Shown: positions 474 to 27,632 of the stretch, piece after piece | Position numbering within the stretch: position 1 is the stretch's first letter | How the letters are laid out: the number at the start of each line of letters is the position of its first letter | Assembly (NCBI GenBank): GCA_945860285.1 | Contig: CAMAQB010000019.1 | Span: 1-43,015, forward strand | DNA: 43,015 nucleotides | Direction of reading: 5' to 3' | From: Akkermansia muciniphila | GTDB taxonomy: Bacteria > Verrucomicrobiota > Verrucomicrobiia > Verrucomicrobiales > Akkermansiaceae | Program-made: the position numbers and the translations under genes | Notes under the pieces: model-generated | The model's input: the letters and a program-made list of their open reading frames with translations, nothing else | Databases searched by the model: none | Told to the model about the DNA's origin: nothing

Positions 474-785
474 TTAGCGATGTGGTGCGCCGTCACCACC
501 GCTGGCTTGCTCGATTTTATTCTTTCGCTTCTTGTCCCATTTTACTCCCAAAATGAGCAGGAGAGCCATCGCCATCGGATGTGTTAGAATGAGCGACCGG
601 GAATGCCAAAGGCTGTAGTTCCAGGTTTGCTCCGTGACCTCGGTGTCTTTGCCATGCTCCGACACAAAAAAACGCCCCTCCTTTTTGGATCCATTGGCTG
701 ACGAGCCGCCGATGATGATCGAACCAACACCAAACGCAACGAAGTTACAAACACACAGGATCAAAATGGCCGTCGCGATCTTCAT
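474..785 (-). CDS. Small two-TM membrane protein, hypothetical
   Basis: A 103-residue protein of unrecognised function. An N-terminal hydrophobic segment (about residues 3-25) and a second one (about 68-82) flank a soluble stretch containing VSEHGKDTEVTEQTWNYSLW. The C-terminus is basic (KWDKKRKNK). I recall similar small proteins with a 'HGKYTEVSE...YSxWH' segment in unrelated bacteria, all uncharacterised, so this is likely a conserved membrane protein with an exposed loop. The start ATG (785-783) overlaps the trpD stop TGA (784-782) in an ATGA arrangement, so it is probably translated by coupling with trpD. The overlap and the coherent two-TM pattern support a real gene. A role in tryptophan metabolism is not implied. 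Confidence 0.7.
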   Translation of the reverse strand: MKIATAILILCVCNFVAFGVGSIIIGGSSANGSKKEGRFFVSEHGKDTEVTEQTWNYSLWHSRSLILTHPMAMALLLILGVKWDKKRKNKIEQASGGDGAPHR

Positions 786-1840
786 GCCTTATGTGTCGAC
801 TGGCTGTGTTTTTGCAACAGCCGCAGTTTTTCCAAGGCGGAGCCGTCGCGGATTGTTTCGCGGGCGATGTCGAGTCCGTCGCCGATATGATCGGAAAGTC
901 CTGCGCAGGTCAGTGCGGCGGCGGCATTGAGCAATACGATGTCGCGCTTGGGACCGCATTCCTTGCCGGAGAGAATGTTCTCAAGAATCACGGCATTTTC
1001 ACGAGCATCGCCGCCTTGCAGATCATCGACCGATGCGACCGCGAGGCCAAAATCTTCGGGACATATCTCTTCGTCCTCCAGATCCTGATAGTTGCCGGAT
1101 TTGCAAATGCGCGTGGGCCCCATCAGACTCACCTCGTCAACCGACCGCCCATCGGCGGTGCCGCCATTGACTACCCAGGCGCTGTCACGACCGAGGCGTT
1201 GAAGAATATCCGCGAATACCGGACAGAGGTCGCGCGAGAACACACCGGTGAGCTGGCATTCGGGCCGCGCCGGGTTCAGCAGTGGACCGATCAAATTGAA
1301 GATCGTGCGGATCTTCCGCTGACCTAACAATTTCCTCGCCTCGGCCACCGCCTTGAATGCGGGATGATAGGCCGGAGCAAACAAGAAACCGAGCCCTGCT
1401 TTGTCGAGGCATTCCCGGAACCCGTCCGTCTTCAAATCCAGCCGAACGCCGAGCGCCTCCAGCACATCGGCGCCGCCGGATTTCGAAGTGATGCCGCGGT
1501 TGCCATGTTTGACGACCACCGCGCCCGCTGCGGCGGCGATGAACATCGCCGTGGTGGAGACGTTGAAGAGATTCAGGTGGTCACCACCCGTTCCGCACAT
1601 GTCGAGAGTCGGCCCCTGCAAATCGAGCAGGTGAATGTGCGGATTCACCGCATGTTCGAGAAACGTTTCGACAAATCCCGCAATCTCCGCCGGTGTTTCA
1701 CCCTTGGCGGCCAGTGCCTCTAACAGATGTGCCTTTTTTTCCGCCGAAGCAGACGGATCCAACAAAAATTCCGCCGCGACCTCGATTTCCCGCGTCGACA
1801 ATTCCTGCCCGCCTTCCAGATGATGTATGAGCGAATCCAT
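782..1840 (-). CDS. trpD: Anthranilate phosphoribosyltransferase TrpD
   Basis: A 352-residue protein of normal family length. It transfers the phosphoribosyl group of PRPP to anthranilate, the second step of tryptophan synthesis from chorismate, in the cytoplasm. Visible signatures are CGTGGD (residues 82-87, PRPP-binding loop), FNVST (92-96), KHGNR (111-115) and SKSGGAD (119-125). The loop after GTGGD reads HLNLFNVST rather than the more usual GSGTFNIST. No other trp genes are in the window, so tryptophan genes are dispersed here. It follows dnaE on the same strand after 50 nt and overlaps the downstream small membrane gene by ATGA. The ATG at 1840 fits the family N-terminus. Confidence 0.95.
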   Translation of the reverse strand: MDSLIHHLEGGQELSTREIEVAAEFLLDPSASAEKKAHLLEALAAKGETPAEIAGFVETFLEHAVNPHIHLLDLQGPTLDMCGTGGDHLNLFNVSTTAMFIAAAAGAVVVKHGNRGITSKSGGADVLEALGVRLDLKTDGFRECLDKAGLGFLFAPAYHPAFKAVAEARKLLGQRKIRTIFNLIGPLLNPARPECQLTGVFSRDLCPVFADILQRLGRDSAWVVNGGTADGRSVDEVSLMGPTRICKSGNYQDLEDEEICPEDFGLAVASVDDLQGGDARENAVILENILSGKECGPKRDIVLLNAAAALTCAGLSDHIGDGLDIARETIRDGSALEKLRLLQKHSQSTHKA

Positions 1841-1890
1841 GTTATCGAGGAAATGCTAGCATGAGCGCGGTGGCGTGAACATCGAAAACA

Positions 1891-4800
1891 TCAGTCATCG
1901 ATCCACTTGTCGAGGGCCTGCAGGAGTTCATCGCTGCGTTTCACATGATAGAGTTCGGGGAGTTCGATGGTGGCGCGCTTGCCGCTGCTGTTTTGGAAAT
2001 GCAGCCACACCGGGGTTTTGCCGGGATAACCGGCGATGATGTGGCGGATGTCCTGCAGGTCGTGCTCGCCGTGACGAGTGGTCCAAAGTGTGAGTTGCAC
2101 AGGGCCCTTGTCATTCTTGGAAGCGACGCGGGGTTTGAGTTCATCAATTTCATAGCCAGTAAGACGACGTTGACCCGTGCGGTCGTCCGTTTGGATCGAA
2201 GCCTTGCACTTGATGATTTTTCCAGGTTCGAGAAAACCTTTTTCGCGTGCGGGCACGAATGATTCACCCCACACCACCAGTTCGGTTGAGCCGGTGAAGT
2301 CTTCAATGACCAGCACCCCGAATGGTTTGCCGTTCTTGGTGGTTTTCGCATCAACCGTGCGGATCATTCCGGCAAAAGGAAATCGCGCGCGCGCATTGGA
2401 TGTATCGAGATCATCGATGAGACCGATCTTGCAAAACTTGTCGGAATCCAACAGCCCGCGGAATTTGTCCAGCGGATGTCCGGTGACATAAAATCCCAGC
2501 AGCTCTTTTTCATGAGCGAGGCGTTCATCCTTCAGCCATTCTTCCAGCACTTCTCCGTGCCTGTTCGGAGCGAGCGGCGGTGCGAAATCGATCGAATCGA
2601 ACAACGACACCTGCCCCGAGGCGCGGTCCTTCTGCAATGACGACGCAGCCGCAACCACGGCATCGAGCCGCACAAACATTGTCGCGCGGTTATCACCTGT
2701 CCAATCGAGCGCGCCCGCCTTGACGAGAGTCTCAAGAATGCGCTTGTTGATCACCCGGGAATCCAGCCGGTTGGCAAGATCCTCCAGGTTTTTGAAAGCA
2801 CCATTTTTGTCACGTTCCTCGATGGCCTGGGCCATGGCGGCCTCGCCACAGTTCTTGATGGCGGCCAAGCCATAGCGAATGGCGGCTGATCCGGCGGGAG
2901 TTGTTTCGGCAAGAAAGCGCAGGCCCGATTTGTTGAGATCCGGAGGCAGGATCTCGATCTTCATGCGGTGGCACTCGGCGACGAAAACGGAGATCTTGTC
3001 GGTGTTGTTGATCTCATTCGAGAGCAGGGCGGCCATGAATTCAACCGGATGATTGGCTTTGAGATAAGCAGTCCAGTAGGAGATATGCCCATAACAAGCC
3101 GAATGGGATTTGTTGAATCCATAACCAGCAAAGCCCTCGATCTTGTTGAAAATCTGGTTGGCCAGCGACTCGCCGATGCCGTTGGTTTTCGCACAACCCT
3201 CGACAAAAACACCGCGCTGTTTGGCCATTTCGGCCGGATCCTTTTTTCCCATCGCGCGGCGGAGCAGGTCGGCACCGGCGAGGGTGTAGCCGGCAAGGAG
3301 TTTAGCGGCATTTTGCACCTGCTCCTGATAAATCATGATGCCGTATGTCACTCCGGAGACCTGCTCCAGCAAGGGATGCTCGAACATCGCTTTTTTGCGA
3401 CCCTTTTTCACCTCGATCATCTGGTCAATGTAAAGCATCGCTCCCGGTCGATACAGGGCGAGCAAATCAATGATGTCCTCGATTCGATCCAATCCGTACT
3501 TGCGGCACACCTCCACCATGCCGCCGGACTCCAATTGGAAAATGCCCATCGTTTCACCGCGGTTGAGGATTTCAAATGTTTTCGGATCATCCAACGGCAC
3601 GTCGGCCACGCGGAATCCGGGAATTTTCCTGCGGATATGGCTCTCGGCATCGTGAATCACGGTCAGGTTTTTCAGACCGAGGAAGTCCATTTTCAAAAGA
3701 CCGACTTCGGAAATGGCGTCCATGTCAAACTGCGTCACCACCTCACCCTCATTGCCAACCGTCAGCGGCAGGTGTTCATCGAGCGATCGGTCGCCGATCA
3801 CCACGCCCGCGGCATGCACTCCGGTATTGCGAACCAAGCCTTCGAGCTTGAGCGCGTAATCCCACAATTCCTGAAAGGTCGACGACGACTCGACCAGCTC
3901 GCGCAGCTCGGTGTTCTTGTCTAAATCGCGGCGCAGGATGGAGTCCCTGTATTTTTCCTTGTCCTCTTCTTCGAGCGGCTTGGGGTCGATCATTTTCGAA
4001 AGCCGGTCGCCATCGCCGTAAGAAACCCCCATCACCCGGGCCACGTCGCGGATCACGCTTTTCGCGCCCAGGGTGCCATAGGTGATGATCTGGGAAACGC
4101 AACGACGGCCGTATTTCTCCCTAACATATTCAATCACCTCGCCGCGTCGCGACTGGCAGAAATCGATGTCGACATCGGGAGGACTGACGCGTTCCGGGTT
4201 GAGGAAGCGTTCGAACAACAAGCCATAGCGCAGCGGGCAGATGTCGGTGATGCCTAGGGTGTAGGCGACCAGCGATCCCGCCGCCGAGCCGCGGCCCGGA
4301 CCCACGGGAATGTCGTGATCCCGCGCCCATTTGATGAAATCCGCGGTGATCAGGAAATAGGAAATGAAGCCCAGCTGACTGATCGTTTCGATTTCATAAT
4401 TGAGGCGCCCGGTTATCGCCGCTTCGGCGGATTTTTCCGCACCATACCGTTGCAGCAGTCCTTCGAAGCAGAGTTTCCGAAAATATTCCTCACGGGGCGA
4501 TCCATCGGGTGTGCCAAACTGCGGATACTTTTCCGAGCTGGTTTTATCGAGCTTGAGGGTGACATTACAACGCTCGGCGATCTCCAATGTCGCATCGCAG
4601 GCCTCCGGAGTATTCTGGAAGATCTCGCGCATTTCCTCGGCAGTTTTGAAATACACCTCCGGGGTGTAATGCATGCGGTTTTCATCGATGAGTTGTTTGC
4701 CCGTGCCGATGCAGATCAATGCGTCGTGAGCCTCGTGGTCACTGCGATGCAGGAAATGCACGTCGTTCGCCGCGACGGTTTTCAAGCCCGCCTCGCGCGC

Positions 4801-5388
4801 CAGAGCGATGAGTTCGGGCAGGACCTGCAATTGCGGTCCGAGCTGGTGATTGTGGATTTCGACGTAGGTGTTCTCCTTGCCGAAGATGTCCACCAGTTCC
4901 GCCAGTGTCTGCGCGGCTTTTTCCCGGTCCCCGGCGAGAAGCCATTCGTTCACAGGTCCGGAAATGCAACCGGTGAGACAGATGATGCCCTTGGAGAACT
5001 TGCGCAGGTCGCCAATTTCGACCCGTGGTTTGCCGTAGTACATGCCCTCAAGATGCCCGACGGTGACTAGTTTCGTTAGATTCTGCCAGCCCTCGTTGGT
5101 TTCCGCGAGCAGGGTCATGTGGCAGTTTCTTTTGCGCCCCGGGATGTCCCGCTTGTCATCCTTGGTCGTCGGACAAAGATAGATTTCGCATCCGAGGATC
5201 GCTTTGATTTGCTGCTTTTTGCAGGCCTTATAAAACTCGATCGCACCAAACATGTTGCCATGGTCGGTCATCGCCACTGCTGGCATGCCGAGTTGCGCGG
5301 CGCGCTTGGCTACATCGGCGGCACGGGTCATTCCATCAAGCGTGGAATATTCCGTATGCAGGTGGAGGTGGACAAAAGAATCGGGCAT
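1891..5388 (-). CDS. dnaE: DNA polymerase III subunit alpha DnaE
   Basis: This is the replicative polymerase catalytic subunit. The start is set at MPDSFVHLHLHTEYS (5388), giving 1165 residues; an upstream in-frame start would add a 14-residue tail the family lacks. Domains in order: an N-terminal PHP domain with HLHTEYS (8-14) and MTDHGN (40-45); a C-family palm with GPGRGSAAGS (363-372) and the catalytic aspartates in PDVDIDF (404-410); fingers with IMIYQEQVQNAAKLLAGY; tandem HhH around the KNLEDLANRLD region; and a C-terminal OB fold. Length and order are those of the DnaE1 type. It is followed by trpD on the same strand. tRNA-Met lies 64 nt upstream in the same orientation. Confidence 0.96.
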   Translation of the reverse strand: MPDSFVHLHLHTEYSTLDGMTRAADVAKRAAQLGMPAVAMTDHGNMFGAIEFYKACKKQQIKAILGCEIYLCPTTKDDKRDIPGRKRNCHMTLLAETNEGWQNLTKLVTVGHLEGMYYGKPRVEIGDLRKFSKGIICLTGCISGPVNEWLLAGDREKAAQTLAELVDIFGKENTYVEIHNHQLGPQLQVLPELIALAREAGLKTVAANDVHFLHRSDHEAHDALICIGTGKQLIDENRMHYTPEVYFKTAEEMREIFQNTPEACDATLEIAERCNVTLKLDKTSSEKYPQFGTPDGSPREEYFRKLCFEGLLQRYGAEKSAEAAITGRLNYEIETISQLGFISYFLITADFIKWARDHDIPVGPGRGSAAGSLVAYTLGITDICPLRYGLLFERFLNPERVSPPDVDIDFCQSRRGEVIEYVREKYGRRCVSQIITYGTLGAKSVIRDVARVMGVSYGDGDRLSKMIDPKPLEEEDKEKYRDSILRRDLDKNTELRELVESSSTFQELWDYALKLEGLVRNTGVHAAGVVIGDRSLDEHLPLTVGNEGEVVTQFDMDAISEVGLLKMDFLGLKNLTVIHDAESHIRRKIPGFRVADVPLDDPKTFEILNRGETMGIFQLESGGMVEVCRKYGLDRIEDIIDLLALYRPGAMLYIDQMIEVKKGRKKAMFEHPLLEQVSGVTYGIMIYQEQVQNAAKLLAGYTLAGADLLRRAMGKKDPAEMAKQRGVFVEGCAKTNGIGESLANQIFNKIEGFAGYGFNKSHSACYGHISYWTAYLKANHPVEFMAALLSNEINNTDKISVFVAECHRMKIEILPPDLNKSGLRFLAETTPAGSAAIRYGLAAIKNCGEAAMAQAIEERDKNGAFKNLEDLANRLDSRVINKRILETLVKAGALDWTGDNRATMFVRLDAVVAAASSLQKDRASGQVSLFDSIDFAPPLAPNRHGEVLEEWLKDERLAHEKELLGFYVTGHPLDKFRGLLDSDKFCKIGLIDDLDTSNARARFPFAGMIRTVDAKTTKNGKPFGVLVIEDFTGSTELVVWGESFVPAREKGFLEPGKIIKCKASIQTDDRTGQRRLTGYEIDELKPRVASKNDKGPVQLTLWTTRHGEHDLQDIRHIIAGYPGKTPVWLHFQNSSGKRATIELPELYHVKRSDELLQALDKWIDD

Positions 5389-5452
5389 CGTCGCTGCACC
5401 AGCGTAGTCGCGACCGGGGTGGCTGGGCAAGCGAGTTGATGAAAAAAATCCT

Positions 5453-5527
<75 letters not shown>

Positions 5528-5733
5528 ATTGAAAAGACCGCCTTTTCCACACGGCGGGCGCGGAGGGTGGACGAAATGAAGCTGTTTGTCCAACAAAAAA
5601 TGCGATCAATGTTTCCGCAAAGTGCGGACTGGTCCATCTTTGCCGTCCTTCTGGCCAACAGGGCTTACTTGCGTCAGTACCGGGCGGCTCACCTACAATG
5701 GCGCGTCGGCAGAAGAACGAAGATCTGCTGAAA

Positions 5734-8031
5734 CTACTCCGCCAGCACTGCAAAATCGATCCATTGACCCTGACCGCCTTCATGAGAATGAACGGCAATG
5801 GTGTTGGTGCCTTTTTTCAGTGCCTTTTTCATCAAATCGGTGGCCGGTATCAGGTAATAACCCTTCGAGCCATCGACCGCGATGATTTGCTGACCATTGA
5901 TGTGGATTTCGGTGTTGTCGTTGTGGCGAATCACCACCGCGCCATTTTTCAAATCGGCCCCGTCGTATTCAAAGGTTTTCCGAAAGTAAATCTCCGGTGT
6001 TTTCCATTCGGTTTTCGAGCCGTTGCCATTGCCGAATGGCGCGAGTCCACTCGGCCAAGCCTTGTCGTCGAAGCCCTCGTTCAGCCATCCTTCGGCGGGT
6101 TTTTCCGTCGTGAATTTGTAGGGAGTGCTCAGTTTTCCGTCTTGCTGCGCGCCCACAAGCACCTTCCACTTGGCGGTGAGAACATGCGTCGACGGCTGCG
6201 GCGCCTGAGCCTCGTTGCGCTCATAAGCTGCCTGGCGCGAAGTGATTTCGTGAATTTTCCTCACGTCGAACTTCGGCTTGCGATTGTAATAATAGAGGCC
6301 GTTGCGCTCCTGTTCAATATCCGTCAACTGGGTGTAACAAAAGCCGAACAAATTGGGATTATCGAGCATGGCATCAATGGTTCCCTTGTAGCGAAGATAG
6401 AACTCATCGAGATTTTTCGGACCGTTGCCATAACTCCAGCCGTCGCCTGTCGCCCAGCCGATGCCGCCGATTTCGCTGATCATGAAGGGAACACCGCGAT
6501 CCGCCTGGGAAGACGAGGCGTTGTAGTATCGGGAGGGAGGAAAGGGACCTTCGGGCGGTGCCCTGAAGAAGTTCTCCCAGCGCTTGCGCAGGCTTTCCGG
6601 TTCGCCGGTATAGTCGTGAGCATCCCTGACTTCCGGATGCGGCAGCGTGTGCGCCCAGCCGCTGGATTCCAGCGCAGGCCGTGTCGGGTCGATCGCCTTG
6701 GTGATGTTCCAAATCATCTGCTGCAACTCCCCTGTGTCCTCAAAGTTCTCGTTGAATGCGCACCAACCGACGATCGACGGGTGATTGCGATCGCGCAACA
6801 GGATCTCGGTCCATTCGTTGACTACGGCGGAAAAACCCTCGCGCTGGTTACCGTATCCCGCATTCGGATACTCGCCCCAGACCAAATAGCCGAGTTTGTC
6901 AGCCCAGTAGAGGAATCGCGGTTCGAATACCTTCTGGTGCAGCCGCGCGCCGTTGTAGCCGCAGGCCATCGACATGACGATATCCTGTTTCAAGGCTTCA
7001 TCGGAAGGAGCCGTCCACAATCCATCGGGATAGAACCCCTGATCGAGGATCAAGCGTTGGAAAACCGGCTTGCCATTGATGAGGACCTTTCTTCCCTCGA
7101 TCGCGATTTTACGCAGTCCGAAGTAGCTCTGCAGTTGATCGATTTTCTCCTTGCCGCTGGCGAGGGTGAATTTCAGATCGTAAAGAAACGGCGCACCCGG
7201 TTCCCACAGTTTGACCGACTTGAGATTGATCACCAGCCGGCTCTGACCCGGACCCGTGGAGGTCTCGGAGCCGACCAGCTCATCGCCTGCATAGGCCTCG
7301 ACAGTCAGCGCAAGGTCCTTGTCCGCGCCGTTGATTTTGGCATCGATCAACACCCGCCCGTGATCGGGATCGGGCACGACGGAAATGGTTTCCACAAAGG
7401 AAGATCCGACGGCCTCCAGCCAGACCGGCTGCCAAATGCCCGTGGTGCGGGTGTAAAAACAGCTGTAACTCTTGTCACCGCTTTGCTTGCCACAGGGTTG
7501 CAGGCCCGACCACATATCGTCGATCACCTTGACCACCACCTCGTTCGCACCGTCCTTGACGAACTTGCTGATGTCGAAGGAGAATTGAACATTCTCGCCG
7601 ACATGCATGCCTGCCAGCTGACCGTTGATGTAAACCCAGGATCGATAATCGACTCCGCCGAAATGAATGCGCACGCGTTGGCCTTTCATCGCGGCTGGCA
7701 GATCGAATGTCCGACGATACCAAACATCCTTGAGTTTCAGGGTGTTGCCGAAGCCCAGGCCGGACAACTTGCTCTCGGGACAGAAGGGTACGATGATCTT
7801 CGATGCGAGATCCTTGCCGTACGTTAGACCACGCGAATCGCCATCGGCCTCCTTGTCGTTTTCAAACTGCCACTCGCCATTGAGACTCATCCAGTTCCCC
7901 CGGAACATGTCGGGACGTGGATGTTCCGGACGCGGTGTGGCGGCCGACGCGGCAAAAATTCCCGCCAGCATGCCAGCAAGAAAAACAGGGAAACAGGGAA
8001 AACGTGGAATGGTGCACTGATCTTTATTCAT
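5734..8031 (-). CDS. Secreted glycoside hydrolase family 2 protein
   Basis: A 765-residue protein with a signal peptide (hydrophobic core ~13-30, ending near AASAATP). Domains in order: a GH2 sugar-binding jelly roll (~45-205, with DVWYRRTFDLP and GVDYRSWVYING), an immunoglobulin-like domain (~210-305) and a TIM barrel (~310-590). A C-terminal carbohydrate-binding jelly-roll-like domain follows (~650-765, EIYFRKTFEYDG). Catalytic glutamates by family analogy are E428 (WCAFNEN, acid/base) and E520 (MISEIGG, nucleophile). The substrate could be a beta-galactoside, glucuronide or mannoside and cannot be fixed from motifs. It lies 42 nt downstream of the serine dehydratase on the same strand. A secreted polysaccharide-degrading role suits the later alginate-lyase-like gene. 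Confidence 0.9.
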   Translation of the reverse strand: MNKDQCTIPRFPCFPVFLAGMLAGIFAASAATPRPEHPRPDMFRGNWMSLNGEWQFENDKEADGDSRGLTYGKDLASKIIVPFCPESKLSGLGFGNTLKLKDVWYRRTFDLPAAMKGQRVRIHFGGVDYRSWVYINGQLAGMHVGENVQFSFDISKFVKDGANEVVVKVIDDMWSGLQPCGKQSGDKSYSCFYTRTTGIWQPVWLEAVGSSFVETISVVPDPDHGRVLIDAKINGADKDLALTVEAYAGDELVGSETSTGPGQSRLVINLKSVKLWEPGAPFLYDLKFTLASGKEKIDQLQSYFGLRKIAIEGRKVLINGKPVFQRLILDQGFYPDGLWTAPSDEALKQDIVMSMACGYNGARLHQKVFEPRFLYWADKLGYLVWGEYPNAGYGNQREGFSAVVNEWTEILLRDRNHPSIVGWCAFNENFEDTGELQQMIWNITKAIDPTRPALESSGWAHTLPHPEVRDAHDYTGEPESLRKRWENFFRAPPEGPFPPSRYYNASSSQADRGVPFMISEIGGIGWATGDGWSYGNGPKNLDEFYLRYKGTIDAMLDNPNLFGFCYTQLTDIEQERNGLYYYNRKPKFDVRKIHEITSRQAAYERNEAQAPQPSTHVLTAKWKVLVGAQQDGKLSTPYKFTTEKPAEGWLNEGFDDKAWPSGLAPFGNGNGSKTEWKTPEIYFRKTFEYDGADLKNGAVVIRHNDNTEIHINGQQIIAVDGSKGYYLIPATDLMKKALKKGTNTIAVHSHEGGQGQWIDFAVLAE

Positions 8032-9843: not shown

Positions 9844-10467
9844 ATGGACAAGTCCACGCTAAATGCCTCAGCGCTCAATGACTTCCTCGGAATCCCCGCG
9901 ATTCTTTCGTCCTTTGCCGATGAACAAACAGGAGTTGCTGACGCGGATGTGGTTCTGATGTTGCAAGTTGCGAGGGGCGACCACCCCGCATTCGAAACTC
10001 TGGTAAAACGGCATCAAAAACCATTACTGAACTTTTTTGTCCGCATGGGCGCTTACTCCGACAGTGAAGACCTTGTTCAGGATACTTTCGTCCGCCTCTA
10101 CCGCTACCGTGAGCGCTACCAGCCCACGGCGAAATTCACCACGTTCCTCTATGTCCTGGCGCACCGGGTCTGGGCGGATCTTGGCCGCAAAAGGCAGCGG
10201 AGCGATCGACTCTCCGCCAGCATCCAGACGGAAGTGGAAACTTGCAGCCAAACAGCAGATGCGTCACCCATGCCCGTCATGGACGTTGAAGCGGCGTTGG
10301 ACAAACTTTCGGACAAACTGCGCGATGTCATTGTCCTCAACATTTATCAGGGCCTGCGCTATCAGGAAATCGCCGATGTTTTGAATATACCGTTGGGCAC
10401 AGTCAAATCCCGCATCAACCTGGCCATCACCGCATTGCGTGAAATATTCCATGAAGAACAACACTGA
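9844..10467 (+). CDS. ECF-family RNA polymerase sigma factor
   Basis: A 207-residue sigma-70 family member with only regions 2 and 4. Region 2 (~45-115) contains HPAFETLVKRHQ, DSEDLVQDTFVRLY and KFTTFLYVLAHRVWADLGRK. Region 4 (~148-203) contains LSDKLRDVIVLNIYQGL, then the helix-turn-helix YQEIADVLNIPLGTVKSRIN. The first ~30 residues precede the conserved core, so an internal start is possible. The 3' end overlaps the anti-sigma gene by 17 nt, the usual coupling for a sigma/anti-sigma pair. A TonB-dependent receptor follows, as in FecI/FecR systems, but that receptor has no N-terminal signalling domain, so a classic surface-signalling cascade is not shown. Confidence 0.92.
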   Translation: MDKSTLNASALNDFLGIPAILSSFADEQTGVADADVVLMLQVARGDHPAFETLVKRHQKPLLNFFVRMGAYSDSEDLVQDTFVRLYRYRERYQPTAKFTTFLYVLAHRVWADLGRKRQRSDRLSASIQTEVETCSQTADASPMPVMDVEAALDKLSDKLRDVIVLNIYQGLRYQEIADVLNIPLGTVKSRINLAITALREIFHEEQH

Positions 10468-11608
10468 CCATCCGGCTAACGGCCAAGACTGCCGCTTCCA
10501 TGAGGATGCCGCGCGCCACTTCACGGGAGAAATTTTCCTCGCGGAGTTTCAGTCCCACTTGAAGGAATGCCCCTCCTGCCAGGAAGTCGGTGCCGTGCTG
10601 CAACGCCTGCGTTCCCTCCCCGCTGTGGATGTTTCCGACCATCTAACAGCCCATGTTCTCGCGGCAATCCAACAGCCGGAAACAAAACTCGTTCGTCCGC
10701 AATTCCACCTCTGGGCTGCTGCAGCCGTCGTGGTGATCGGCCTTACGGCAATGAGCATCTGGCCGTTTGGAAAAAAACCAACGGAAACTCTTGCGCAAAG
10801 CAGTCAACCAGCGGTTGTGGCGCAAAACACCGACCGCAGTGTGCAGGAGGCGCTGGACTGGTTCTGCCGCACCCAGGAGACCGATGGTTCCTGGAGTCCG
10901 GCCCGTTGGGGCGGTGATCCGCGATTTGAAGTCGCGTTGACTGCCCTGCCCATGCTCGCCATTCTTTCTGCGGGTGCCGAAAAGACGCCACAGCGCGTGG
11001 AAGTGATCGCCAAGGCCCGGCAATATCTGCAATCCACCTGTGACCGCAAAGGCCGCTTCGGTCCGCAGTTTTACGGTTCATCCTACAGCCAGGGCATTGC
11101 AACGCAGGCACTGCTGTCATGCTACAAAAACCGTCCCGATGAGGAAAGCAAACGCCTGCTCGACAACGCGTTGACCGTGATTGTTTCCCAACAGCATGCG
11201 AATGGATGGTGGGGGCTGGGCGGAAATCCCCAACCCGATCTATCCATCACATTGTGGCAGGTAGAAGCATTGAAAATGGCCGTGGATCTCGGTTGGAAGA
11301 ATGTGCAACCTCATCTCACCCTTGGCGCGAAATGGGTGGCTACCCACTCCCATGCCGACACCACTCCGCGAAACGGAATCACTTCCGGCGGAGAAGTCGA
11401 TTATTTCAATGCCTATTTTGCAACCACACTTCTCAAATCGGCGAATGATGAATCCTCCCGCCAGCGCTTGGCCTCGATTCGTCACACCTTGCTCGGTAAA
11501 CAGGTTCAAAGGGGCAACGACTCCGGCAGTTGGACACCTGATGACCGTTGGGGCATGGCCGGAGGCAGGCTTTACACCACGGCACTGGCTTCTCTCTCGC
11601 TGCACTGA
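10451..11608 (+). CDS. Zinc-finger anti-sigma factor fused to alpha/alpha-toroid (prenyltransferase/squalene-cyclase-like) domain
   Basis: A 385-residue membrane protein. The ATG at 10451 is chosen; a GTG 12 nt upstream is also in frame. The N-terminal ~60 residues form a zf-HC2-type anti-sigma domain with H-x3-C-x2-C (H36, C40, C43) and an upstream cysteine in QDCRFHED. One TM helix follows (~87-106, LWAAAAVVVIGLTAMSIW). The periplasmic region contains repeats resembling squalene-cyclase/terpenoid toroid QW motifs: WFCRTQETDGSWSPARWG, QQHANGWWGLG and GNDSGSWTPDDRWG, each followed by a helical 'ALxxLxxL' segment. By family logic the N-terminus holds the sigma factor inactive at the membrane and the toroid senses a periplasmic signal. 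Catalysis is unlikely because the DxDD-type acid motif is not seen. The fusion is unusual. Confidence 0.85.
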   Translation: MKNNTDHPANGQDCRFHEDAARHFTGEIFLAEFQSHLKECPSCQEVGAVLQRLRSLPAVDVSDHLTAHVLAAIQQPETKLVRPQFHLWAAAAVVVIGLTAMSIWPFGKKPTETLAQSSQPAVVAQNTDRSVQEALDWFCRTQETDGSWSPARWGGDPRFEVALTALPMLAILSAGAEKTPQRVEVIAKARQYLQSTCDRKGRFGPQFYGSSYSQGIATQALLSCYKNRPDEESKRLLDNALTVIVSQQHANGWWGLGGNPQPDLSITLWQVEALKMAVDLGWKNVQPHLTLGAKWVATHSHADTTPRNGITSGGEVDYFNAYFATTLLKSANDESSRQRLASIRHTLLGKQVQRGNDSGSWTPDDRWGMAGGRLYTTALASLSLH

Positions 11609-11640: not shown

Positions 11641-11832
11641 TCGCCGGGAATCACTTACGGAAAATTCCATCGTGACACGATAGAAAAAATGCATCGTTCC
11701 CACGATTGCCACTGCAGGTCGGAATAAAAAAATTCACACCGCCACTGAACCTTTCGCGAATCCCCGACGCTCATGATTTAGGAAGGTGCCAAATGCTCCT
11801 TGCATCGATCAACTGAGACACACGTCCGAGAC
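11641..11832 (+). promoter_or_regulatory. Receptor leader with cobalamin-riboswitch-like sequence blocks (weak)
   Basis: The leader between the anti-sigma gene and the TonB receptor contains short blocks in an order reminiscent of the cobalamin riboswitch: GGGAA (~11646), GCCACTG twice (~11708 and ~11741), GGAAGG (~11781) and CCGAGAC (~11825) next to the start codon. The central CCCGC-ACTGT block and the full AGGAGACCTGCC box are not convincing. It may be a diverged aptamer or chance. The region has no other recognisable feature apart from A-rich runs. Confidence 0.25.
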
Positions 11833-14043
11833 ATGAACAACAGCAGCCAAGACAATCGGCCCCGCAAGCGGGGAATCGCACTCAAGAATCCTTCCCACCT
11901 GAAGGGACAACCAAAGAAAACCGCGGGAATTCTGCTCCCGGCAATTCTCATCGCACCTCTGCTGGCGCACGGCCAGGACTTGTTGAAGCCACTGGTCGTC
12001 ACGGCAACACGCTCCCAGGTTCCGCTCGCCGACACGGCCTACACCAGCACTTATCTGGATGAGGATTTTCTTTCGGAAAACACCCGGCGCAATATTCCCG
12101 ATGCGCTCAGTTTCACTCCCGGAGTGCTTGCCCAAAAAACCACCTACGGTCACGGCTCCCCTTTCATTCGCGGCATGACCGGTCGCAGCAACCTGCTGTT
12201 GGTTGACGGCATACGCCTCAACAACTCCACGTGGCGGGGCGGTCCGGTGCAATACTGGAACACGATCGATTCCTACTCCATCGACCATCTCGAACTGATC
12301 AAAAGCCAGGGCAGTGTGCCTTATGGCAGCGATGCCGTGGGCGGCACCCTCAACGCCTTTACCAAGGATTCCGGATTCCGCGACGAGGCGCAAGACCGGT
12401 TTTTCAGCCACGGCTCCGGATACTATGAATATCGTAGCAACGGCGAGGGATCAAACATCGGACGCCTGGAAGGATCGATGGGACAGGGCGGAAAATGGGG
12501 CATGAATGCCGGCATCAGCGTCAAGGATTTTGGCGACATCCATGACTCGGCGGTGGGCACGATGAAAAACACCGGCTATGACGAAACCGACTGGGACCTG
12601 CGTTTCGACATGGCGCTCAACCCTTCCACCACCCTGACAGCCGCATTGCAGCATGTGCAACAGGACAATGTCTGGCGCTGGCACCGTACGATTTACAATC
12701 CCGGCTGGGATCATGATGGGCATGTTTCAGCTCCCGGAACATGGCTTGGCAACATCTACGATCAGGATCGATTGTTAGGTTACTTGAAAATCGCGTCCGA
12801 AGACCCCCGCGCAGGCTCCTGGATTTCACGCTGGTCGGCGACGCTATCGTATCAGGATTCATCGGACAGCGAATTTCAGGACCGTCGCACAGCTGTGGGT
12901 CAGTCACTCAGTTCCACCCGCTATCAACAAATCCAGGAAGCCGATGTGCAAACCTACGGCATCGACCTTGAATTTGAATCGCCGATGGGCCCGGGGAAAT
13001 GGATTTACGGTTTGGACTACTACCAGGACGAAGTGGGCAGTTACGCCACACGCAACACCGGCAGCGGTTCTGTTTTTCGCCCCGCCTCCCGTCCGGTAGC
13101 CGATGATTCGACTTACAAACTTTTCGGCCTTCACGGTCAGTATCATTGGTTGGTGAATGATGCCCTCCGCATCGAGTCGGGCGTGCGTTACACCTTCGCG
13201 CAGGCGGAAATCGGCAAGCGCTGGGATGCCAATGCCGGTGCCGACATTTCCTCGCAGCGGGAATGGGACAATGCCGTTTTGTCGCTGCGGGCGATCCATG
13301 ACTTCAACAGCGAATGGTCGATGTACGGTGGTGCCTCACAGGCATTCCGCGCGCCCAACCTTGCCGACCTTTCCGGTGCCACAACCAGCCGATCCGGTGT
13401 GGAGACCGGCGGATCGGTGGATCTGGATCCGGAACGCTACATCACCTACGAAATCGGCACCCGCCATGGCACGGAGCATACGTCGTTCCAAGCAGCGGTG
13501 TTTTATACCGACATTGATGACATCATCACCGATGTCCCCGTCAGCATGGGATCGAGCACTTCGCAATCGGAAAACGGTCGCAATGGATACATCTACGGAT
13601 TTGAAATCGAGGGGGCATGGGAGATCAACGAACAATGGTTGTTGACGGGATATGCCGCATGGCAAAAGGGTGAAACCGAAACATCCAGCTATGTCGGCGG
13701 CCCGGTCACCGAAGAACCCTACAGCCGCGCGCTTCCGCTCACCGCATCAGTGGCCTTGCGTTGGACGCATCCTTCGAAAAAATACTGGGTTGAAGGCCGG
13801 GTGGTCGGTGCCGAAAAAGCGGATCGTCTCTCGGCGGCGGACATTGCAGACAACCAGCGTTTCCCAAGCGGCGGCACTCCGGCCTATGTGGTGCCGTCGA
13901 TGCACGCGGGCTGGCAGGCAACAGAAAACCTGTTAGTCACTGCGGGCCTTGAAAACATCACCGACGAAGACTATCGCAACCATGGTTCAGGCAACAACGA
14001 ACCGGGATTCAATGCCATTCTTGGCGTGAAAGCCACGTGGTAG
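11833..14043 (+). CDS. TonB-dependent outer-membrane receptor (hemin/siderophore-like)
   Basis: A 736-residue receptor from ATG 11833; an upstream TTG at 11800 is a less likely start. A basic N-terminus of ~30 residues precedes the signal-peptide core AGILLPAILIAPLLAHG, longer than usual. A TonB-box-like segment (LLKPLVVTATRSQ) follows, then the plug: NIPDALSFTPGVLAQKTTYG, SPFIRGMTGRSNLLLVDGIR and GSDAVGGTLNAFTK. A 22-stranded barrel with aromatic-rich strands ends in GFNAILGVKATW, with the terminal aromatic that marks BAM substrates. The plug resembles receptors for hemin or protein-bound iron, but vitamin B12 cannot be excluded. It lies downstream of the sigma/anti-sigma pair on the same strand. 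Confidence 0.9.
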   Translation: MNNSSQDNRPRKRGIALKNPSHLKGQPKKTAGILLPAILIAPLLAHGQDLLKPLVVTATRSQVPLADTAYTSTYLDEDFLSENTRRNIPDALSFTPGVLAQKTTYGHGSPFIRGMTGRSNLLLVDGIRLNNSTWRGGPVQYWNTIDSYSIDHLELIKSQGSVPYGSDAVGGTLNAFTKDSGFRDEAQDRFFSHGSGYYEYRSNGEGSNIGRLEGSMGQGGKWGMNAGISVKDFGDIHDSAVGTMKNTGYDETDWDLRFDMALNPSTTLTAALQHVQQDNVWRWHRTIYNPGWDHDGHVSAPGTWLGNIYDQDRLLGYLKIASEDPRAGSWISRWSATLSYQDSSDSEFQDRRTAVGQSLSSTRYQQIQEADVQTYGIDLEFESPMGPGKWIYGLDYYQDEVGSYATRNTGSGSVFRPASRPVADDSTYKLFGLHGQYHWLVNDALRIESGVRYTFAQAEIGKRWDANAGADISSQREWDNAVLSLRAIHDFNSEWSMYGGASQAFRAPNLADLSGATTSRSGVETGGSVDLDPERYITYEIGTRHGTEHTSFQAAVFYTDIDDIITDVPVSMGSSTSQSENGRNGYIYGFEIEGAWEINEQWLLTGYAAWQKGETETSSYVGGPVTEEPYSRALPLTASVALRWTHPSKKYWVEGRVVGAEKADRLSAADIADNQRFPSGGTPAYVVPSMHAGWQATENLLVTAGLENITDEDYRNHGSGNNEPGFNAILGVKATW

Positions 14044-14752: not shown

Positions 14753-17004
14753 CAACGTTCGGCCGTTTTTTTCAAAACACCTGCGGTTTTCGAAGCTTCG
14801 GTCATGTCGACCAAATCAGACAAAATCGACAGACCCTCGCGTTTCACCGAGTCCATGCCGCTGGGCCATTTCGGGGTATCGTCCAGATCTGCTGTTTCAT
14901 CCTTGGCCTTGCGCATGTAGTCCTCGTTCTCCGCAGCCGGATCGAACTCATGTGGCGGTTTGTTTTCGCTGATGTCGGCAAGCGACAGTTTGGAGAACTT
15001 CATGCCCGCCTTGTCGGACTTTGCCATTTCGGCAAAACGAAGCAGTCGCTCCTTGTTGCGGGCGTGACGCTTGGCATCGGAGTCCGCCAGTTCCTTGTCG
15101 CGGACTTCCTTGTTGAGGGACTCCTTGTTGTTGGCGATCTTCTTCTTGATCTCCGCAACATCCTCACTGATGTAAACAAGATCTTTGTTCTCCTTCACCC
15201 GCTTGTCGCTCAACTCCTTCAGTCGCGGCACGAACAAATGATCGCGATCCAGTGGCTCGAAATCGGACGCACGGCGGATGCGGTCGAACTCCATCCGGTT
15301 ATCGAGAAAACTTTCGCCCACTTCGAGCCCGTCGAGGAAACTCGGCAGCGCGATGTCCGAAATCACACCCTGCAACTGGGTGGAATCGCCGGAGGGGCGA
15401 TAGAATTTCTGCAGGGTGACCTTGACCGTGCCCGCGCGGTCGCGCCTGGCAAAAAACGGCATCATCCGCCCCACATCCATCAACTGCTGCACCGTCCCCT
15501 TGCCAAAAGTGGAGGTGTCGCCGACGATGACCGCCCGATTGTGATCCTGCAGCGCACCGGCCAGAATTTCGCTGGCGGACGCGCTCGTTTTGTCGATCAG
15601 CACAACCAGCGGTCCGTCATAGATCGGCTCGCGCAATTCCGAGTCCTTGACCTCGATCTGCCCGAGTTCGTTTTTCACCTGGACGACGGGACCACGTTCG
15701 ATGAAAAACCCGCTCATTTTGCGCACTTCTTCCAACGAGCCGCCGCCGTTGCCGCGGAGATCAATGATCAATCCGCTGATTTTTTCCTCCATCAAACGTC
15801 GCAACAGCTTTTCGACATCCTTCGCGCAACTTGCTTCATCCTTGTCGAAATCCATGTAAAACGACGGCAGTGTGATCCATCCAAGTTTCTCCGGGCGTCC
15901 TTTGCTGTCCTTTTTCTCGAAAATTTGCGCGCTGGCCTGCTCGTCCTTCATTTCGACTTTCCCGCGGGAGATGGTTATGAACGATGTTTCCCCGGCCGAA
16001 GCGCCGGCGGGTTCCACCTTCAAGCGCACCTCTGTGGCCTCCTTGCCGCGGATCAGATCGACCACCTTGTCGATTTTCATGAACATGATATCGGTGATTT
16101 CCCCCGTGTTCAGAGAGTCGACCCCGACGATCCGGTCGTTCAGTTTCAACTGCCCCGCTTTGTCGGCTGGCCCGCCGACAACGATGCCCTTGATGATCGT
16201 CGCCCCGTCCTCCTCGGCCTGCAGCATGGCACCAATGCCAACAAGCTGGTTTTTCATGCTGTCCTTGAATCGGGCGATTTCGCGATAGCCCATGTATTCG
16301 GTGTGCGGGTCGAAGGTCTTGGTAACCGCCGAGAGAAAATAATTGGCGACATCCTCTTCATCGGCCTCGGCGACGCTGTGCATCAGGCGCTCGTAGCGCA
16401 ATCGCACTTTCTCCTTGGGGCTTTTCTCCTTGGCCAGGGGATCTTCCTTGCCCTGTTCCTTGGCAAGGCGGGCCACGGTTTCCCGCCGCAAGGTTTCACC
16501 CAACAGCGCCTCCTTGATGTTCAGCCTCCAGAGATTTTCCGATTCAGCCCGGTTCTTGGCCCACGGCGCGTTTTTGCGGGTGCGCTCCACACTTTCATCC
16601 TTGGTGAAATCAAATTCCTCCTCCTTGAGAATCTTGTTAACGAATGTGGTGCTTTCGGTGACACGCTGTTTGAATGTGTTATAGATGTCGTTTGCGGCAC
16701 TGACACATTCTTTTTTCAACAGCAATTCATGAATTTTGTCGCCGTAATCAGTTTGAAAACGAGTCACGTCAGTCTGCGTGAAGTAAACCCGCTTGGGGTC
16801 CATGTCGCGCAGGAAGGTTTCCAGAAACTTGTTGCTCAGCTGCTTGTCCCACTTGTTGCGGGCAAAATGAGTGTTCTGAAGGAGAATGGCCACCTGCTTG
16901 CCGACTTCGTTGTAGTCGGTCGGCTGTTCGGCGGATACGGAACAACTGCTGGCCAGGACCAGGCTCGCGGAGGCCACAATTTGACGAATTTTTTGAAAGC
17001 TCAT
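14752..17004 (-). CDS. prc: Carboxy-terminal processing (tail-specific) protease Prc, S41 family
   Basis: A 750-residue periplasmic protease. The start MSFQKIRQIVASASL (17004) gives a signal peptide ending near SSCSVSA, perhaps a lipobox LASSC; an upstream open stretch with no signal is ignored. An N-terminal helical domain contains FLRDMDPKRVYFTQTD. The PDZ domain (~220-300) has IVVGGPADKAGQLKLNDRIVG. The S41 core has IIDLRGNGGGSLEEV, then TSASASEILAGALQD with the catalytic Ser, and TFGKGTVQQ with the catalytic Lys. The C-terminal Lys/Glu-rich tail resembles the Prc DUF3340 domain. Length matches Prc/Tsp rather than the shorter CtpA. A PDZ-only protein lies upstream on the same strand, and yggS is coupled downstream. 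Confidence 0.93.
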   Translation of the reverse strand: MSFQKIRQIVASASLVLASSCSVSAEQPTDYNEVGKQVAILLQNTHFARNKWDKQLSNKFLETFLRDMDPKRVYFTQTDVTRFQTDYGDKIHELLLKKECVSAANDIYNTFKQRVTESTTFVNKILKEEEFDFTKDESVERTRKNAPWAKNRAESENLWRLNIKEALLGETLRRETVARLAKEQGKEDPLAKEKSPKEKVRLRYERLMHSVAEADEEDVANYFLSAVTKTFDPHTEYMGYREIARFKDSMKNQLVGIGAMLQAEEDGATIIKGIVVGGPADKAGQLKLNDRIVGVDSLNTGEITDIMFMKIDKVVDLIRGKEATEVRLKVEPAGASAGETSFITISRGKVEMKDEQASAQIFEKKDSKGRPEKLGWITLPSFYMDFDKDEASCAKDVEKLLRRLMEEKISGLIIDLRGNGGGSLEEVRKMSGFFIERGPVVQVKNELGQIEVKDSELREPIYDGPLVVLIDKTSASASEILAGALQDHNRAVIVGDTSTFGKGTVQQLMDVGRMMPFFARRDRAGTVKVTLQKFYRPSGDSTQLQGVISDIALPSFLDGLEVGESFLDNRMEFDRIRRASDFEPLDRDHLFVPRLKELSDKRVKENKDLVYISEDVAEIKKKIANNKESLNKEVRDKELADSDAKRHARNKERLLRFAEMAKSDKAGMKFSKLSLADISENKPPHEFDPAAENEDYMRKAKDETADLDDTPKWPSGMDSVKREGLSILSDLVDMTEASKTAGVLKKTAER

Positions 17005-17104
17005 AATCTGCAATATCTGCCGTGTTATCTTACGTGGGTCATTGTGGCATTCTTTGGCAATTTGTCCACGAATCTTAGCATCACTGGCCCGGCGCTTTGT
17101 CTTT

Positions 17105-17899
17105 TTATTTGACCTCCTCCTTGGGAAACTGCCGCTCAAGCCATTCGGCGAAGTACTTGTCGCTGGATTTATCCTCCTCCACCAGCTTCGCAAGTTCCGC
17201 TGGATCGACCTGAAATCCGCCCCCGTTAATGATCCCTCCATTCGGGATGAGTCTCATCAACGCGGTGTTCTCCAGATTCGCCGGCCGCCGTGATAGTTCG
17301 ATCCCGAGGCTCGTGAGTTTTTCATTTTTCCAGATGCCGAAAACCGCCTTGTTGCCCGCGCCCTTGGCACGGATTATGGCGGAGAGGCCCTTGCCAAGGT
17401 CGCTGATTTCCATCGGTTGATGCCAGCGGATGTCGTCGAGGGAGACGATGATGTCACCGGGCTGGATGCCTCCTTTTTCGGCGGGGGAATCCTTGGTCAC
17501 CCAGGTGACAGGAATTCCAAAACACGGTTTGTCCTCGCCTGGCAGCACAATCTGCTCTTCCACGCCCATGGTGATGCCAACGTAACCTTCGCCAAATTTG
17601 CCATACTCGCGAATGGCTATGCTCTTCAACAGCTTCAAACATCGCTCGCGGACTTCGGGCTCGTTGGCATCGCGCAACAGGGCTAAAAACTTCTGCCTGG
17701 CCTTGTCCGGTTCGCTGGTGGCCCAGGTTTCCATGAACGCCATCGCGCTCTTGCGATCCCCTACGTCGTCCGCAGCCAGTTTTTGAACATGTTCGGCAAC
17801 CTTCGTGTCTGAAAAATCGTCTGGTTCCGCCTGCGCGCATGGTGGATGCAAAAGCCATATGGCAAGGCATCCCAGGGCCAGACAATTGATCGGTTTCAT
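17105..17899 (-). CDS. Secreted PDZ-domain protein
   Basis: A 264-residue protein starting at MKPINCLALGCLAIWLL (17899), with a signal peptide ending near CAQA. The N-terminal half is helical with Armadillo/HEAT-like character (KLAADDVGDRKSAMAFME, RQKFLALLRDANEPEVR). A PDZ domain follows (~105-200) with GYVGITMG, VTKDSPAEKGGIQPGDIIV and LGIELSRRP. No protease catalytic residues are visible, so it is probably a substrate-binding or adaptor protein. It sits 100 nt upstream of prc on the same strand, which also has a PDZ, and may assist it in the periplasm (inference). Confidence 0.8.
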   Translation of the reverse strand: MKPINCLALGCLAIWLLHPPCAQAEPDDFSDTKVAEHVQKLAADDVGDRKSAMAFMETWATSEPDKARQKFLALLRDANEPEVRERCLKLLKSIAIREYGKFGEGYVGITMGVEEQIVLPGEDKPCFGIPVTWVTKDSPAEKGGIQPGDIIVSLDDIRWHQPMEISDLGKGLSAIIRAKGAGNKAVFGIWKNEKLTSLGIELSRRPANLENTALMRLIPNGGIINGGGFQVDPAELAKLVEEDKSSDKYFAEWLERQFPKEEVK

Positions 17900-27198: not shown

Positions 27199-27632
27199 AG
27201 ATGCGGCTCGGAAACAATCATGATTCCCCAAAATTGGCAAGGTGATAGCAGCGGCTTTCCCTTTGGAACAGCCGGAGCCAAGTGCCAAGTCAGCAGTGAT
27301 CTGTGAATCCAAAGAACAATCAACAAGGTCCGAACCGTCAACGGCCTTTTTGTCTTCAGCAGCCCTTTTTGACAGAATTTCAGAATTTTCGGAATTCAAC
27401 AAAACCGTTCGATTTGCCAAAAGAGGGAAGTGGCGGATCTTACGGCGATCTAAACCAGGCTTTGCTTGTGAGACCAGCGGCTGCGTTGATTGAATGCGGG
27501 GGGATGATTGCCCGTTTTTCTTTTTTCCAGGCCGATCGCCGGGTATCATTCCCCCACCCCTCAGTGAAAATATTTTCCGATGTTGCAATTTTTTCTTGTC
27601 ATATTGAGACTGAGTCTCAATATCGACCGCGC
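27199..27632. other. 434-bp divergent intergenic region alaS / TonB receptor
   Basis: No convincing gene is present. The open frame that runs through this stretch into the receptor has no signal peptide or family match. The region is more AT-rich than its neighbours, with runs of T near 27520-27600. It must hold the alaS promoter on the minus strand and the receptor promoter. The only clear element is the dyad at 27601-27623. A possible -35-like TTGCAA at 27583 precedes it. Confidence 0.6.
27601..27623. promoter_or_regulatory. Fur-type dyad operator before the TonB receptor
   Basis: ATATTGAGAC-TGA-GTCTCAATAT is a perfect dyad with 10-bp arms, ending 9 nt before the receptor ATG. The core TGAGACTGAGTCTCA has the 7-1-7 form of Fur-family operators. 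Its position at the transcript start or ribosome-binding region would allow repression when iron is plentiful. The regulator (Fur, or another family member such as Zur or Mur) is inferred. Confidence 0.7.

What the first reader, a model, noticed from the sequence alone, without database searches (positions are those of the whole stretch)
10451..11608. Anti-sigma factor with a periplasmic squalene-cyclase-like toroid as sensor
A zf-HC2 anti-sigma domain, one TM helix and an alpha/alpha-toroid with three QW-like repeats occur in one polypeptide, overlapping its ECF sigma gene. Known anti-sigma sensors differ (FecR, RskA, carbohydrate-binding domains). A toroid related to prenyltransferase or cyclase folds may bind a terpenoid or other lipid, or a protein as in complement/TED domains. 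The partner receptor downstream lacks a signalling domain, so signal input probably goes through this toroid.
Basis: partly seen in the sequence, partly recalled or inferred. Interest (0 to 1): 0.6.

Follow-up and report, generated by a model that had tools for sequence, protein, structure and literature searches.

The report
Toroid-sensor anti-sigma switch controlling a receptor
In Verrucomicrobiota bacteria, a membrane anti-sigma factor carries an unusual ring-shaped (alpha/alpha-toroid) sensor domain, and sequence evidence from dozens of genomes indicates that its sigma factor switches on one particular outer-membrane uptake receptor, a wiring in which the usual receptor-to-anti-sigma handshake domain is missing.

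Summary
Window 10451-11608 encodes a class I anti-sigma domain (Hx3Cx2C), one TM helix and an alpha/alpha-toroid of the squalene-cyclase/TED superfamily, overlapping its ECF sigma gene by 17 bp. It is not a one-off. A profile search found the same fusion in about 34 of 387 Verrucomicrobiota genomes, almost always right after an ECF gene. The toroid fold is supported by Pfam, by a profile match to squalene-hopene cyclase (E 2e-19), and by a moderate-confidence model. The catalytic DxDD motif is absent in all 39 toroids. New here: a sigma promoter, GAACC-N16-CG(A/T/C)T, precedes the receptor (or tonB-receptor) gene in 15 of 16 loci, at no other spacing. It also precedes unlinked receptors of the same subfamily in 6 of 6 genomes, and adjacent secreted toroids in 5 of 5. 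Receptor subfamily and regulator co-occur (25 of 34 versus 46 of 353 genomes, p 1e-13). No receptor has an N-terminal signalling domain. So this is a dedicated cell-surface-signalling-like switch whose periplasmic input domain is a toroid. What the toroid binds (imported ligand, protein partner or lipid) is unknown; a terpenoid is not supported. New variant of a known kind; literature search limited to the open-access library.

The parts
9844..10467 (+). ECF sigma factor gene (207 aa)
   Evidence: Sigma70_r2 and r4_2 above cut-off; orthologue directly upstream of the anti-sigma in 30 of 32 phylum loci
10451..11608 (+). Anti-sigma factor with toroid sensor (385 aa)
   Evidence: about 34 genomes carry full fusions
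10490..10675 (+). Class I anti-sigma domain; Hx3Cx2C zinc motif at 10556-10579
   Evidence: motif in sequence; homologues pass the zf-HC2 cut-off
10703..10762 (+). Single transmembrane helix (residues 85-104)
   Evidence: hydropathy 1.94 over 19 residues
10808..11605 (+). Periplasmic alpha/alpha-toroid (residues 120-385), QW-type motifs at about 10859-10894, 11180-11213 and 11489-11533
   Evidence: Pfam, PDB profile search, fold comparison
11747..11771 (+). Predicted ECF-dependent promoter GAACC-N16-CGCT ahead of the receptor
   Evidence: conserved in 15/16 loci at exact spacing 16; 0/27 ahead of ECF genes; shuffles 0.06
11833..14043 (+). TonB-dependent receptor, plug + barrel, TonB box directly after the signal peptide, no STN signalling domain (target gene)
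   Evidence: subfamily co-occurs with the anti-sigma

Best explanation
It is a dedicated ECF sigma/anti-sigma switch for one TonB-dependent receptor. In the resting state the cytoplasmic anti-sigma domain holds the ECF sigma at the inner membrane. The periplasmic toroid, a catalytically inert relative of cyclase/TED toroids with a conserved pocket mouth, senses a signal tied to the receptor's cargo, either the imported ligand itself or a periplasmic protein that reports it. The anti-sigma is then inactivated, probably by regulated proteolysis, and the freed sigma transcribes the receptor (with tonB and/or a secreted toroid where present) from GAACC-N16-CG(A/T/C)T promoters. Shown by sequence: the architecture, the sigma pairing, the promoter, the receptor as target, co-occurrence, and absence of STN domains. 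Inferred: sigma inhibition, the toroid as signal input, the cargo, proteolysis.
For: Fusion found in about 34 of 387 phylum genomes, ECF directly upstream in 30 of 32 fetched loci. Receptor of one subfamily within the fetched locus in 9 of those 32, although the 14 genomes tested hold only 1-8 receptors each, and it is the only one in G729 and G619. Promoter motif in 15/16 receptor or tonB upstream regions, 0 at any of 9 other spacings, 0/27 ECF upstreams. Test in trans: the motif precedes unlinked receptors of the same subfamily in 6/6 genomes. Co-occurrence odds ratio 18.5, p 1e-13. Of 13 examined receptor-bearing genomes scored as lacking the regulator, 6 of the 8 with the motif proved to have a divergent or truncated toroid anti-sigma beside an ECF gene, and none was detected in the 5 without it. 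No STN in the genome. Inner-helix N-termini of the toroid are the best conserved part (2.58 versus 1.46 bits for outer helices). A Prc homologue (14755-17241) and an M50 site-2 protease exist in the genome.
Against: No experiment; sigma inhibition and ligand sensing are inferred. Nine of 34 regulator-bearing genomes lack a detected receptor of this subfamily, and at least five receptor-bearing genomes lack both the motif and a detected regulator. Some anti-sigmas keep only about two toroid repeats (L209-L212, L216), so a closed ring is not always needed. The motif was read first from the window genus and some phylum loci, so that part of the promoter count is not independent.
Confidence: 0.72

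Rival explanations
1. The toroid is a protein-recognition domain, as in complement/TED: it binds the receptor's periplasmic face, TonB, or a secreted toroid made by the same regulon. A toroid-toroid handshake would replace the STN-STN contact of FecA/FecR-type systems.
For: TED_complement hits in 15 of 36 toroids; structural neighbours headed by C3 TED; secreted toroids with their own sigma promoter lie next to the anti-sigma in L085, L090, L209, L210 and L212; in FoxA/FoxR homotypic STN-like domains interact (PMC11637429).
Against: Most loci, the window included, have no adjacent secreted toroid; the own-genome promoter candidate ahead of a giant PDZ/toroid-like protein is not conserved. No interaction data.
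Confidence: 0.35
2. The toroid senses a terpenoid, hopanoid or other lipid.
For: Closest sequence relatives are squalene/hopene cyclases.
Against: No DxDD in 39 members; target genes are a TonB-dependent receptor, tonB and secreted toroids, not lipid genes; superfamily members bind sugars, cobalamin and proteins as well.
Confidence: 0.08
3. The toroid is only a structural shield or spacer: envelope proteolysis is the real sensor and the toroid has no specific ligand.
For: Truncated toroids occur in one family; Prc- and RseP-type proteases are present.
Against: Toroid positions at inner-helix N-termini are conserved more strongly than the anti-sigma domain itself; even the Zn motif is lost more easily (21 of 39 keep it).
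Confidence: 0.12
4. It is not an anti-sigma factor but a membrane-anchored toroid protein beside an ECF gene by chance.
For: zf-HC2 is below the curated cut-off in the window protein.
Against: ECF adjacency in 30 of 32 loci across the phylum and homologues above the zf-HC2 cut-off.
Confidence: 0.02

Closest known systems
FecI-FecR-FecA type cell-surface signalling (also FoxIRA, PupIRB, Has)
   Same: ECF sigma, single-pass inner-membrane anti-sigma, TonB-dependent receptor as target gene; fecA is a FecI target while fecIR is transcribed by sigma70 (PMC9249621), matching the absence of the sigma motif ahead of the ECF gene here
   Different: Receptor has no N-terminal STN signalling domain and the anti-sigma periplasmic part is a toroid; anti-sigma is zf-HC2/class I type
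Class I anti-sigma factors (ASDI; RsrA, ChrR, RskA, RsiW kinds)
   Same: Anti-sigma domain with Hx3Cx2C, co-encoded with the ECF; zinc and non-zinc forms mixed within a group, as described in PMC7406223
   Different: C-terminal toroid domain; no mention of a cyclase/toroid sensor found in the papers searched
Squalene-hopene cyclase / prenyltransferase / TED alpha-alpha toroid superfamily
   Same: QW-type repeats, profile and fold similarity
   Different: No DxDD, no CGEQ thioester motif, membrane-tethered to an anti-sigma domain

Membership tests
Class I (ASDI) anti-sigma factor | Anti-sigma domain with Hx3Cx2C or its zinc-free variant | tested here: met
   Motif at residues 36-43; five homologues above the zf-HC2 cut-off; motif in 21 of 39
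Class I (ASDI) anti-sigma factor | Co-encoded with an ECF sigma | tested here: met
   30 of 32 loci
Class I (ASDI) anti-sigma factor | Binds and inhibits the ECF | not testable with these tools
   needs a binding or transcription assay
FecIRA-type cell-surface signalling | Receptor is a target of the ECF sigma | tested here: met
   at the level of a conserved promoter motif, not measured
FecIRA-type cell-surface signalling | Receptor carries an N-terminal signalling (STN) domain | tested here: not met
   no STN hit; TonB box directly after the signal peptide in the receptors whose N-terminus could be read; no STN in the genome
FecIRA-type cell-surface signalling | Anti-sigma has a FecR periplasmic domain | tested here: not met
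   no FecR hit in the protein; the two FecR-domain places in the own genome are elsewhere
Alpha/alpha-toroid of the squalene-cyclase superfamily | QW repeats and toroid fold | tested here: met
   the model is of moderate confidence
Class II terpene cyclase (enzyme) | Catalytic DxDD motif | tested here: not met
   absent in all 39 toroids
HemR-type heme receptor | Conserved His between the FRAP and NPNL boxes | tested here: not met
   TonB-hemin is only the best-scoring subfamily, below its cut-off; no His in this stretch in the 15 receptors where it was found; the His criterion is from memory

The most novel reading that the evidence does not exclude
A distinct class of receptor-coupled sigma signalling in Verrucomicrobiota in which an alpha/alpha-toroid replaces the STN/FecR module: the anti-sigma toroid reads either the imported cargo or a secreted toroid made from the same sigma promoters, possibly by toroid-toroid contact.
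Probability: 0.45. Interest if true: 0.75.

Novelty: new variant of a known kind. Interest (0 to 1): 0.64.

Why it matters
It gives a phylum whose regulation is little studied a defined sigma switch with a promoter, a target receptor and a testable sensor domain. It would show that receptor-linked ECF signalling can work without the STN handshake, and would give one signalling role to the many membrane-tethered and secreted toroid proteins seen in these genomes.

Tried and rejected
Full-length structure prediction (pLDDT 43) was uninformative; toroid-only gave a usable but moderate model. Viral contigs hold no relative. Weak toroid hits in other families proved to be secreted or membrane toroids without an anti-sigma domain. 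A second own-genome promoter candidate (G000:C55, giant PDZ/toroid-like protein) was rejected as chance, since homologues lack the site and a reversed control pattern occurs 14 times against 23. GAACT...CGNT hits inside ECF coding sequence are probably coding coincidences (a conserved NFF-type stretch). No riboswitch near the receptors. Heme as cargo was considered: best-hit family only, His not conserved; ZnuA and a Peripla_BP_2 ABC transporter lie next to two loci, so cargo is open. Mirror-tree analysis was left out because species relatedness would confound it. Other phyla, e.g. Planctomycetota, were not searched (no centre genome to hand). The 2021 ECF re-classification paper is not held, so an existing group listing cannot be excluded.

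Full report
What is there. The window protein at 10451-11608 is a 385-residue, single-pass membrane protein: an anti-sigma domain with Hx3Cx2C, a hydrophobic segment at residues 85-103, a short linker and a 266-residue C-terminal domain with QW-type motifs. SQHop_cyclase_N passes its cut-off; zf-HC2 does not in this protein, but does in full-length homologues L038, L077, L083, L087 and L090. The sigma and anti-sigma genes overlap by 17 bp.

The toroid. A profile of 36 homologous domains matches squalene-hopene cyclase (E 2e-19), thioester-containing/alpha-2-macroglobulin TED domains (E 5e-6 and weaker) and the RabGGTase beta subunit (E 6e-4) in the PDB; 34 of 36 members hit SQHop_cyclase_C, 16 Prenyltrans and 15 TED_complement. 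The toroid-only model (pLDDT 58.5, pTM 0.61) has top VIA-align neighbours that are almost all alpha/alpha toroids: C3 TED Z 14.1, squalene-hopene cyclase Z 12.2. The model is moderate, so sequence homology carries the weight. DxDD and CGEQ are absent in all 39 members. Conservation is highest at the N-termini of the five presumed inner helices (2.58 bits) and the QW loops (2.49), against 1.46 for outer helices and 1.51 for the anti-sigma domain. In alpha/alpha toroids that end usually forms the mouth of the cavity (general knowledge), so a binding site there is inferred.

Distribution. In the own genus 7 of 10 genomes sampled, plus one of another family, have close full-length relatives, and in the genus relatives the three genes sigma/anti-sigma/receptor are kept while the flanks differ. 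Across 387 Verrucomicrobiota genomes, 37 match at E 1e-20; by query coverage I count 34 as true fusions. In 32 loci fetched, an ECF gene lies directly upstream in 30; L089 is a contig end and L095 has the sigma about 2.4 kb away. The zinc motif is kept in 21 of 39; mixing of zinc and non-zinc forms is known for such groups (PMC7406223).

The target. Receptors of one subfamily lie in the same locus in 9 of the 32, often divergent from the sigma and with a neighbouring tonB (TonB_C confirmed in L073 and L074), although 14 tested genomes have only 1-8 receptors each. GAAC[CT]-N16-CG[ACT]T occurs in 15 of 16 receptor or tonB upstream regions, in none at spacings 12-15 or 17-21, in 0 of 27 ECF upstreams, with a shuffle mean of 0.06. 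Seven of the 16 are from one genus and the motif was first read there and in some phylum loci, so the independent tests matter more. In six regulator-bearing genomes whose receptor is unlinked, the receptor has the same motif (6 of 6). Over 30 receptor loci the motif appears in 22 (one probable coding hit excluded), while eight control spacings together give 2. Receptor subfamily and regulator co-occur: 25 of 34 against 46 of 353, odds ratio 18.5, p 1e-13 (genome relatedness not corrected). Among genomes first scored as lacking the regulator, six of eight with the motif turned out to have a divergent or shortened toroid anti-sigma beside an ECF gene (G662, G470, G616, G683, G445, G538), G585 and G669 did not show one, and none was detected in the five without the motif. 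In the own genome the motif pattern is intergenic and well placed only at the receptor, so the regulon looks small. L097 has a motif just ahead of its ECF gene, a possible exception to the lack of autoregulation.

Secreted toroids. Where a secreted toroid gene sits next to the anti-sigma (L085, L090, L209, L210, L212) it also has the promoter, 5 of 5. In the L209-L212 family the anti-sigma itself keeps only about two repeats. This raises the toroid-toroid rival.

Mechanism. The receptors have a TonB box straight after the signal peptide and no signalling domain; no STN domain exists in the own genome. The FecA-type contact described in PMC9249621 and PMC11637429 therefore cannot operate here in its known form. 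A Prc homologue in the window and an M50 protease make regulated proteolysis possible, but nothing ties them to this system. The cargo is unknown: TonB-hemin is only the best-scoring model, below cut-off, and neighbours include ZnuA (L074) and a Peripla_BP_2 ABC transporter (L100).

Known or new. Searches of the open-access library found no paper describing an anti-sigma with a cyclase/toroid sensor; the 2021 ECF classification is not held, so a group listing without comment cannot be excluded. I rate it a new variant of receptor-linked ECF signalling.

Noticed in passing
L047 (G000:C3:57000-68000), 630-6080: ExbB-ExbD-ExbD followed by two inner-membrane-tethered toroid proteins; the first has an S-x3-H motif in its TM helix and a Gly/Pro-rich linker, like a TonB-type transducer with a toroid instead of TonB_C. 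Related tethered toroids in eight other loci were checked; S-x3-H was seen in L240 and L243 only, and no ExbB/ExbD match was found beside them.
   Followed up: partly
L209, L210, L212: Short anti-sigmas with about two toroid repeats next to a divergent, full-length secreted toroid carrying the same sigma promoter.
   Followed up: partly
L036 and L037: Genus members whose anti-sigma domain has lost the zinc ligands while the toroid stays conserved.
   Followed up: partly
L038:1-1100: Upstream of a toroid anti-sigma only an apparent frame-broken remnant of the sigma 3' end remains, beside an IS30-like fragment, and no receptor is nearby.
   Followed up: no
window 14755-17241 (-): Prc/Tsp tail-specific protease gene close to the system; neighbourhood not conserved in the genus.
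   Followed up: partly
window 27303-29759 (+): A second TonB-dependent receptor, siderophore/FecA-like by best hit.
   Followed up: no
G000:C49 and G000:C13: FecR-domain hits and weak TonB-receptor barrel hits in frames of 1275 and 1233 aa; possibly FecR-receptor fusions.
   Followed up: no
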